Assembly (NCBI RefSeq): GCF_007754155.1
Contig: NZ_CP037423.1
Span: 5,548,865 to 5,612,864 of the forward strand
Reading direction: 5' to 3'
Length of the DNA stretch: 64,000 bases
From: Stieleria neptunia
Lineage (GTDB): Bacteria > Planctomycetota > Planctomycetia > Pirellulales > Pirellulaceae
Shown one piece after another: positions 11,520-60,195 of the stretch. A program made the translations under genes and the position numbers. Within the stretch, counting starts at the first letter, position 1. Each line of letters starts with the position of its first letter. Under the pieces are notes generated by a model. That model was not told the DNA's origin and did no database searches. It saw only the letters and a list, made by a program, of their open reading frames with translations.

Positions 11520-11568
11520 AATCGCCTCAAGGCTGACACCAACGGTCTCTGACCGGCCTGTCGATTGA

Positions 11569-11637
11569 GTGAGCCGCGACGCGTAAGCGGCCGGGCATTT
11601 CGGCGCCCGCCCGAGGCCTTACGGCCAGCGGCTCACC
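11569..11637. repeat. 70-bp imperfect palindrome
   Basis: The arms start and end with GTGAGCCGC / GCGGCTCAC and share an inner CGTAAG / CTTACG, with mismatches between. It is located just past the enolase 3' end. It resembles the GC-rich short palindromes elsewhere in this window. Confidence 0.5.
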
Positions 11638-11698
11638 ATTGCCTCCGCTGATCCCGATTCAATCAACAGACCGTGACGCGTCCCGCTGACAATCGTTT

Positions 11699-14694: not shown

Positions 14695-14765
14695 CCGCCA
14701 CCCCAGCGGGACGCGTCAGCGAGTGGCACGTGCCATCTACTTTGACGCCAGGCAGGGTGTTTGAT

Positions 14766-14845
14766 GTTAGCGGTAGGGCGCGAGCCCTCCGGTCTTTCCC
14801 GGTGTTGTTGCAACGCAACCGGACGGCTCGCGCCGTTCCGCTAAC
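14766..14845. repeat. RARALPL palindrome, copy A
   Basis: The 80-bp inverted repeat begins GTTAGCGGTAGGGCGCGAGC and ends CGCCGTTCCGCTAAC, with CTCCGGT and ACCGGACGG as inner arms. In one reading frame it encodes KDRRARALPLT. Other copies are at 19554 (interrupted) and 59894 (within a gene). This copy is uninterrupted and non-coding. Confidence 0.8.
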
Positions 14846-14909
14846 ACCGTTCGAGCCAAAGTAGAGGCATTGGGCACACGCCAATCGGCTGACGTCAAGC
14901 GAACGCCGG

Positions 14910-19553: not shown

Positions 19554-19730
19554 TTAGCGGCAGGGCGCGAGCGGGTTGTCGATTTAGTCGATGTTTCGAA
19601 ATCAACGCGATCACCCCAGCCCGACGCGTTAGCGAGGGGCGCCGCGTCGCCCCTTGCTAACGCATGTGGGCTAAAATCGACAGCCCGCGAGCCCGCCGGT
19701 CTTTTACGGTGCAACCGGACGGCTCGCGAG
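19554..19730. repeat. RARALPL palindrome, copy C, interrupted
   Basis: The two halves match copies A (14766) and B (59894) when 19573-19686 and one GCGAGC are removed: TTAGCGGCAGGGCGCGAGC joins CCGCCGGTCTTTT. The right terminal arm seen in copies A and B is missing, so this copy is also truncated. Confidence 0.75.
19573..19686. mobile_element. 114-bp palindromic insertion with 6-bp duplication
   Basis: The element starts GGGTTGTCGATTTAG and ends CTAAAATCGACAGCCC, near-matching terminal inverted repeats. A second inverted pair lies inside (GACGCGTTAGCGAGGGGCG and CGCCCCTTGCTAACGCATG). GCGAGC is present on both sides (19567-19572 and 19687-19692), as expected for a target-site duplication. A fragment resembling its core occurs at 14697-14730. 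It carries no coding capacity, so any transposase would act in trans. Confidence 0.75.
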
Positions 19731-59304: not shown

Positions 59305-60195
59305 TCAGGGCAAGTCCGGAAAACCCTCCAACTCGGGCAATTCAGGCATCTCGGGCAACCGCAGTTCTTCGGGAAGCTCAAGGTCCATGCCGGCGGGAAT
59401 GGATCCGAGCCCCAAGTCCGGATCCGGCGGAGTCGCAAATCCTGGATCCGACAGATGGAATTCGTCCGGTGCGGCTGAATGACGAGAGATCGCACTGGGG
59501 CTTGTCGTGCGTCGTCGGACAGGTTGCGGCGTCAGACCTTGAACCGCCGGGTTTTCGATGGGTTGGTCCATCATCGCCAACGTCATGCACTCGTCCAGGT
59601 GCCGGATTTCCACGGACCTGTTTTTCATGTTCGTCGAGAGCAACGAGATGCCCTCAAACTCTTCTCCCGCTTGAATCGGGACCAGTTTCCCACCGACCCG
59701 CAGCAGCGCCAGCGTGGCAAGTTCGTCTTCTGCATCCGACGACACAAACCCGATCAGTCGCACGGTCGACTGCTCGGTCTCTGGTTCCGGCGCGTCAACT
59801 TCGACTTTGACGGTCGCCGTCTTGGGGGGCAGAAAGAAATTGAGATGATCGGGAATCGCTGAGATGTCTTGTTCGTCAAACGCGTTGTTTTTTGTTAGCG
59901 GTAGGGCGCGAGCCCTCCGGTCTTTCAAGGTGTTCTCAGGCTGGGACCGGACGGCTCGCGTTGTTCCGCTAGCTGCTTCCGTGTCAGCGTAGGTGGCATT
60001 GGTTGCGGGCGCCCCGGCGTCAGACATCGCCGTTGCAGCCGGCCCGCGTCGATCGACCAGGGTCAGCGGCAGCGTCTCTTGGCGTTGCGTCATCACCGCG
60101 GACGGCTCCGGTCCGCATCCTGATACGCAGATCAGGGCCACGAGGAAGGCCGACACGATGTGACGCTGGGGAGTGGACGATGCGAGGGGTTGCAT
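59305..60195 (-). CDS. PilP/GspC-like lipoprotein
   Basis: The 296-residue product has a short leader with lipobox VSGC (Cys27), a variable region (to about 105), then a beta-rich domain (about 120-190; VRLIGFVSSDAEDELATLAL, LRVGGKLVPIQAGEEFEGI) resembling PilP/GspC HR domains that connect inner- and outer-membrane secretion parts. A Pro/Leu-rich C-terminus follows. Residues NTLKDRRARALPLTKNN are a RARALPL repeat inserted in frame. It is divergent from the GspE/F operon and would fit as a component of that apparatus. ATG 60195 is used; GTG 60204 is in frame. Confidence 0.7.
   Translation of the reverse strand: MQPLASSTPQRHIVSAFLVALICVSGCGPEPSAVMTQRQETLPLTLVDRRGPAATAMSDAGAPATNATYADTEAASGTTRAVRSQPENTLKDRRARALPLTKNNAFDEQDISAIPDHLNFFLPPKTATVKVEVDAPEPETEQSTVRLIGFVSSDAEDELATLALLRVGGKLVPIQAGEEFEGISLLSTNMKNRSVEIRHLDECMTLAMMDQPIENPAVQGLTPQPVRRRTTSPSAISRHSAAPDEFHLSDPGFATPPDPDLGLGSIPAGMDLELPEELRLPEMPELPELEGFPDLP
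59894..59973. repeat. RARALPL palindrome, copy B, in-frame in a gene
   Basis: Same layout as copy A: it begins GTTAGCGGTAGGGCGCGAGC and ends near GTTCCGCTAGC with ACCGGACGGCTCGCG in the right arm. It lies inside the lipoprotein gene and is translated as NTLKDRRARALPLTKNN. The flanking coding sequence stays open, so the insertion preserved the reading frame. Confidence 0.85.

What the first reader, a model, noticed from the sequence alone, without database searches (positions are those of the whole stretch)
19554..19730. Element inserted within an element: empty-site evidence from sister copies
The RARALPL palindrome at this locus is interrupted by a 114-bp palindromic DNA with GGGTTGTCGATTT-type terminal repeats and flanking GCGAGC on both sides. 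Copies at 14766 and 59894 show the uninterrupted junction. This is direct evidence of transposition-like insertion with a 6-bp target duplication by a non-coding element, whose core also resembles 14697-14730.
Basis: seen in the sequence. Interest (0 to 1): 0.7.

Follow-up and report, generated by a model that had tools for sequence, protein, structure and literature searches.

The report
IS1182-type miniature element inside a palindrome

Summary
At 19554-19730 a dispersed palindrome (A) is interrupted by a palindromic, non-coding element with inverted ends. It is one of many: in about 0.9 Mb of this genome, 46 of 85 candidate pairs of such ends lie in A at this position, 45 of them with another core, type C. 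In 444 kb (the window plus evenly spaced stretches) 7 of 33 A arms are filled.

Of 35 full copies read, 32 have an A-like flank. One copy outside A fixes the rule. The filled site reads CCGACCATG-IS-CATGGCGAG; G002 and G005 keep CCGACCATGGCGAG. So the duplication is 4 bp and the element ends in C...G. In the window CGAG is duplicated around 116 bp; the apparent 6-bp GCGAGC repeat includes the element's own end bases.

Best reading: a MITE moved in trans by an IS1182-type transposase that prefers REP-like palindromes. The window's genome has no copy of that IS in the searches made, so its MITEs look like orphans. New member of a known kind.

The parts
19554..19571 (+). left part of palindrome A (outer left arm), ending in the left copy of the 4-bp duplication
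19568..19571 (+). left copy of the 4-bp target duplication, CGAG
   Evidence: 4-bp rule
19572..19687 (+). type-B MITE, 116 bp including its terminal C and G
   Evidence: ends
19572..19587 (+). left terminal inverted repeat, CGGGTTGTCGATTTAG
19672..19687 (-). right terminal inverted repeat, CGGGCTGTCGATTTTA read on the minus strand
19617..19636 (+). part of the MITE core that resembles palindrome E
19688..19691 (+). right copy of the 4-bp target duplication, CGAG
19688..19729 (+). rest of palindrome A, cut off at its right outer end
14766..14845 (+). uninterrupted copy of palindrome A
59894..59972 (+). uninterrupted copy of palindrome A
11554..11673 (+). type-C MITE with C and G ends, inside palindrome E, with TGAC at 11550-11553 and 11674-11677

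Best explanation
The insert is a MITE: a short non-coding element whose ends are recognised by a DDE transposase of the IS1182 family. The transposase, supplied in trans, cuts at the terminal C|GGSYTGTCGATTTAG repeats and joins the element to the two target strands 4 bases apart; gap filling leaves CGAG on both sides. It prefers one position in each arm of palindrome A, the CNAG in GGC-GCNAGC-C. Shown by sequence: many copies, shared ends, fixed site, 4-bp duplication, and an IS with nearly the same ends at the same site in a sister genome, with empty sites in relatives for one IS copy. Inferred: that this IS or a close relative moved the MITEs, the strand chemistry, and that palindromic shape helps to choose the site.
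For: Own genome: 542 end motifs against 26 in the control. 46 of 85 pairs lie in A; of these 27 have an exact 6-bp and 30 an exact 4-bp repeat. C copies use both arm types in both orientations, so they are many events. G012: IS of 1993 bp, 24 of 35 copies identical, 32 of 35 with at least one A-like flank, 29 of 35 with an exact 4-bp repeat, 35 of 35 with the C...G ends; transposase NF033551 IS1182, 328 bits against a cut-off of 270. Empty site for the copy at 3396947 in relatives; the two flank matches overlap by exactly 4 bases in G000, G001, G002 and G005. B elements of 112-115 bp with the same ends occur in G002, G005 and G012; 10 of 16 rows show an exact 4-bp repeat. Three of 29 IS1182-type loci scanned in the family have similar ends and 4-bp repeats. 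A arms are 9 of 745 GCNAGC hexamers in 400 kb of G012, so the hexamer alone does not explain 31 or more of 35.
Against: The own genome, G002 and G005 have no DUF772 gene of this kind (the own two DUF772 genes have other ends), so the partner is in another species. IS and MITE share only the terminal repeats. 16 of 46 MITEs in A lack an exact 4-bp repeat, and of the 27 B or C rows outside A only 4 have one; 6 of 35 IS copies lack it. The uninterrupted A in the same gap of G002 and G005 has different bases right next to it, so orthology of that A is not certain. At two other own sites relatives lack an intact A altogether. No MITE pair was seen in 400 kb of G012.
Confidence: 0.9

Rival explanations
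1. The insert is a REP-type element moved as single-stranded DNA by a Y1 (HUH, RAYT) transposase.
For: The genome has 8 Y1_Tnp matches, several beside their own palindromic arrays.
Against: A 4-bp duplication and long terminal inverted repeats do not fit Y1 transposition, which leaves no duplication (established knowledge). None of the 8 Y1 loci has both ends within 1 mismatch of the MITE end; weaker pairs with 2-3 mismatches occur and look like chance.
Confidence: 0.03
2. A with the insert inside is one composite repeat that spreads as a unit; the junction was made once.
For: At two own sites the relative G012 lacks an intact A together with the insert, so A copies come and go as a whole.
Against: Insertions lie in both arm types and in both orientations, in other palindromes (window 11554), and B and C cores share the site. 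In G012 the IS is at the same position of many A copies.
Confidence: 0.04
3. The insert is a structured RNA gene or a terminator, and its repeats arose without transposition.
For: It folds strongly (-66.4 kcal/mol as RNA).
Against: The only Rfam hit is far under its threshold (20.3 bits against 67, E 0.52). Hundreds of end motifs and duplicated flanks.
Confidence: 0.02

Closest known systems
IS1182 family, with IS1272 of staphylococci as the best-studied case (PMC5678879, passages seen)
   Same: Same transposase family by NCBIfam; targets are inverted repeats.
   Different: IS1272 is reported to replace the target inverted repeat and to leave no duplication; here the palindrome is kept and 4 bp are duplicated. 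The targets of IS1272 share no sequence; here one dispersed palindrome dominates.
Insertion sequences that land in REP sequences (Tobes and Pareja 2006, PMC1525189, passages seen)
   Same: IS copies at a fixed place in dispersed intergenic palindromes; ISRm22 at the axis of symmetry.
   Different: The listed REP-targeting elements are of the IS3, IS110, IS4, IS5 and IS256 families; the word IS1182 does not occur in that text. Here non-autonomous relatives share the target.
GTAG and CGTC REP families (PMC3733652, abstract and passages seen)
   Same: Dispersed palindromes; Planctomycetes are named among hosts.
   Different: Those are 20-40 bp and tagged; A is about 80 bp with GTTAGCGG...CCGCTAAC ends. 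A was not matched to any of those families.
Palindrome-associated transposable elements of Haloquadratum (PMC3119063, search listing only)
   Same: Small non-coding elements tied to palindromes, by name.
   Different: Not compared here.

Membership tests
MITE of a DDE insertion sequence | short, non-coding, terminal inverted repeats | tested here: met
   114-116 bp, 15-nt arms 93% complementary
MITE of a DDE insertion sequence | target-site duplication | tested here: met
   CGAG on both sides in the window; 30 of 46 copies in A exact
MITE of a DDE insertion sequence | ends shared with an autonomous IS | tested here: met
   CGGCCTGTCGGTTTAGT and CGGCCTGTCGATTTAGT of the G012 IS against CGGGTTGTCGATTTAGT of the insert; same site. 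The IS is not in the window's own genome
MITE of a DDE insertion sequence | mobilised by that transposase | not testable with these tools
   needs a transposition assay
IS1182 family (for the G012 partner) | transposase over the curated cut-off | tested here: met
   NF033551, 328.2 bits, cut-off 270; DUF772 and DDE domains
IS1272-type inverted-repeat replacement | target palindrome removed, no duplication | tested here: not met
   both halves of A remain and 4 bp are duplicated
REP/REPIN moved by RAYT | no duplication; Y1 transposase gene beside copies of the repeat | tested here: not met
   duplication present; 8 Y1 loci without matching end pairs
IS110/IS1111 element in REP | DEDD transposase, site-specific insertion without terminal repeats of this kind | not tested
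   no search for DEDD genes was made; the terminal repeats and the duplication speak against it

The most novel reading that the evidence does not exclude
This clade of IS1182 transposases reads palindromic DNA geometry and places its 4-bp cut at or next to the tip of a small hairpin (GTAA in TTGGC-GTAA-GCCAA, TGAC in CGC-TGAC-GCG, CGAG beside the tip of ACGGC-GCGA-GCCGT). A family of dispersed palindromes thereby serves as a genome-wide safe landing pad on which insertion sequences and their MITEs stack in nested layers with little harm to genes.
Probability: 0.3. Interest if true: 0.65.

Novelty: new member of a known kind. Interest (0 to 1): 0.45.

Why it matters
It is a clean natural system: a target palindrome, two MITE families, an insertion sequence with 24 of 35 identical copies in a sister species, and empty sites in relatives. 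With it one can ask how an IS1182 transposase chooses palindromes, and why this one duplicates 4 bp where IS1272 is said to replace the palindrome. It also explains part of the dispersed repeats of these large planctomycete genomes.

Tried and rejected
Rejected: a 6-bp duplication. Three IS sites of G012 (993952, 3396947, 3556800) repeat 4 bp but not 6, and empty sites agree. Rejected: Y1/RAYT origin and a structured RNA.

Partner search in the own genome: 8 PF01797, 29 PF01609 and 12 PF00665 loci were scanned; no locus has both ends within 1 mismatch, weak pairs with 2-3 mismatches look like chance. Of 26 PF13701 hits, 24 lie in two IS groups whose ends are printed and one in a gene scanned; the weak hit L167 was not scanned. 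The 2 PF05598 loci have other ends. IS110, IS66, IS256 and other families were not searched.

Led nowhere: two own A(C) sites in L033. In G012 neither keeps an intact A (site 1 at most a fragment), and in G005 the second site is closed by the match coordinates, so they give no nested empty site. Loci L320-L322 and L347-L349 were fetched and not analysed.

Dropped or doubtful rows: one search lists 65 pairs, 25 with an exact 6-bp repeat; many of the rest are chance combinations of ends. In one search, 12 of 85 pairs have no known core and are probably chance, and three elements (L003, L028, L038) are listed twice. One search used loose matching and counted chance hits; (26 empty, 7 filled in the own genome; 8 and 0 in G012) replaces it, leaving out L282, which overlaps the window. 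In one search the A-like left flank of copy 8158853 is really the end of a B element; one of the 36 hits (gene at 9141101) was cut by the fetched stretch and is not among the 35.

Literature. In their listings I saw no paper on IS1182 MITEs or on this palindrome in planctomycetes; only passages of PMC3733652, PMC5678879 and PMC1525189 were opened, everything else was seen as listing.

Full report
WHAT IS THERE. The window lies in a one-contig genome of 10,975,817 bases. The junction GCGCGAGCGGGCTGTCGATT was found in named genomes mostly of Stieleria sedimenti and Rhodopirellula sp. SM50, with a few hits in Roseimaritima, Aporhodopirellula and two unrelated contigs; no call names the window's own species. 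At 19554-19730 the palindrome A (intact at 14766 and 59894) is split by 114 bp with inverted ends GGGTTGTCGATTT...AAATCGACAGCCC, and GCGAGC stands on both sides. Insert and A both fold into long hairpins. The insert lies upstream of two long reading frames that point away from each other; their functions were not tested.

A LARGE FAMILY. GGGCTGTCGATT with up to one mismatch occurs 280 + 262 times, control 11 + 15 (100 places were listed). In 400 kb taken around such hits plus the window, 25 of 65 listed convergent pairs have an exact 6-bp repeat, most of them about 117 bp apart and with the two halves of an A arm outside. Most have another core (type C, GTGAGCCGC...); the window's insert is type B. 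Over about 0.9 Mb of own stretches: 85 pairs; 45 C and 1 B in A; 14 C and 13 B not in A by a fuzzy test; 12 without a known core. In A, 27 of 46 have the exact 6-bp and 30 of 46 the exact 4-bp repeat. The 59 C rows (one element twice) have mean pairwise identity 0.859 and use both arm types in both orientations. In 444 kb (the window, which holds the finding, plus 19 evenly spaced stretches), 26 A arms are empty and 7 filled; in 400 kb of G012 8 are empty and none filled.

THE PARTNER. Y1, DDE_Tnp_1 and rve loci of the own genome (49 in all) show no such pair of ends. Its two DUF772 genes sit in 1579-bp elements with other ends; both lie in A at another position, with CGGAG repeated. Among DUF772 loci from 100 genomes of the family, 3 of 29 scanned have similar ends and 4-bp repeats: L202 CTAA, L204 GTAA, L206 CAAG. 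In the genus only the own genome and G012 have DUF772 (2 of 14). G012 has 36 hits of one kind; its contig length, 10,769,056, is that of the record of Stieleria magnilauensis that holds the same protein. The element is 1993 bp with ends CGGCCTGTCGGTTTAGTG and CTAAATCGACAGGCCG; its transposase is IS1182 family. Of 35 full copies, 24 are identical; 26 have A-like sequence on both sides, 6 on one, 3 on none; 29 have an exact 4-bp repeat, 26 an exact 6-bp one, 6 neither; all 35 have C before and G after the GGCC ends. Two copies lie directly beside a B element.

FOUR BASES, NOT SIX. At 3396947 in G012 the flanks are ...CCGACCATG C|IS|G CATGGCGAG.... G002 and G005 read ...CCGACCATGGCGAG, G000 and G001 ...CCGACCATGGCC, G117 ...CCGACCATCGCC. 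The matches of the two flanks overlap by exactly 4 bases in G000, G001, G002 and G005. Sites 993952 and 3556800 also repeat 4 but not 6, as do own copies L005, L009, L284 and window 11554. So the window's duplication is CGAG at 19568-19571 and 19688-19691, and the element is 116 bp.

TARGET. A arms are 9 of 745 GCNAGC hexamers in 400 kb of G012; chance use of the hexamer would give 31 or more of 35 with a probability near 1e-55. Symmetry around the cut (GTAA in L204, TGAC in palindrome E at window 11554) suggests that palindromic shape matters. This is inference from few sites, and in A the cut lies one base off the local axis.

EMPTY SITES FOR THE WINDOW INSERT. In G002 and G005 the same intergenic gap holds an uninterrupted A. 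The bases next to A differ from the window's, so the A copies may be orthologous with later changes or may have come separately: supporting, not decisive. In G012 part of this gap is taken by another transposase-like reading frame, which was not analysed. For two other own sites G012 has no intact A at all.

HOW IT MOST LIKELY WORKS. A transposase of the G012 type cuts at the C|G ends and joins the element 4 bases apart into the A arm; B and C carry only the ends and are moved in trans. The sequences show the products; the enzyme's action on B and C is inferred. As the own genome, G002 and G005 lack this IS but hold MITEs, these look like orphans of a lost or unsampled partner.

RELATION TO KNOWN SYSTEMS. 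Insertion sequences of other families that land in REPs are known (PMC1525189, passages). IS1272, of the same family, is reported to replace palindromes without duplication; that paper also cites a remark that some IS1182 members target palindromes (PMC5678879, passages). Added here: an IS1182 member that keeps the palindrome, duplicates 4 bp, lands mostly in one dispersed palindrome, and shares that site with two MITE families. I file the insert as a MITE of the IS1182 family, a new member of a known kind.

Noticed in passing
L071-L078 (own genome): A 461-464 aa transposase gene (best NCBIfam match IS4 family, just under the cut-off) sits in another palindrome, D (GTGGGATAGGCTTCCAGCC...): D on the right in 8 of 8 copies and on the left in 7 of 8, with GGCTTCCAGCC on both sides in several.
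   Followed up: partly
L169, L170 (own genome): The own genome's two IS1182-family elements (1579 bp) also lie in palindrome A, 2 of 2, at another position, with CGGAG on both sides.
   Followed up: partly
L031 9848-10087; L323 (G012): Stacked insertions: two C elements in tandem at one A site separated by GCGAGC, and two IS copies in tandem in G012.
   Followed up: no
window 14740-14880; L033 13186-13375; L039 12808-12918; L042 11657-11765: A itself sits inside an outer palindrome (TGCCACCTACTTTG...CAAAGTAGGTGGCA) at some places: three paired arms in 824 kb, all three around A or a filled A, and 12 unpaired arms.
   Followed up: partly
L051, L052, L053, L058 (own genome): Several Y1 transposase genes are flanked by their own tandem palindromic arrays, each with a different unit.
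   Followed up: no
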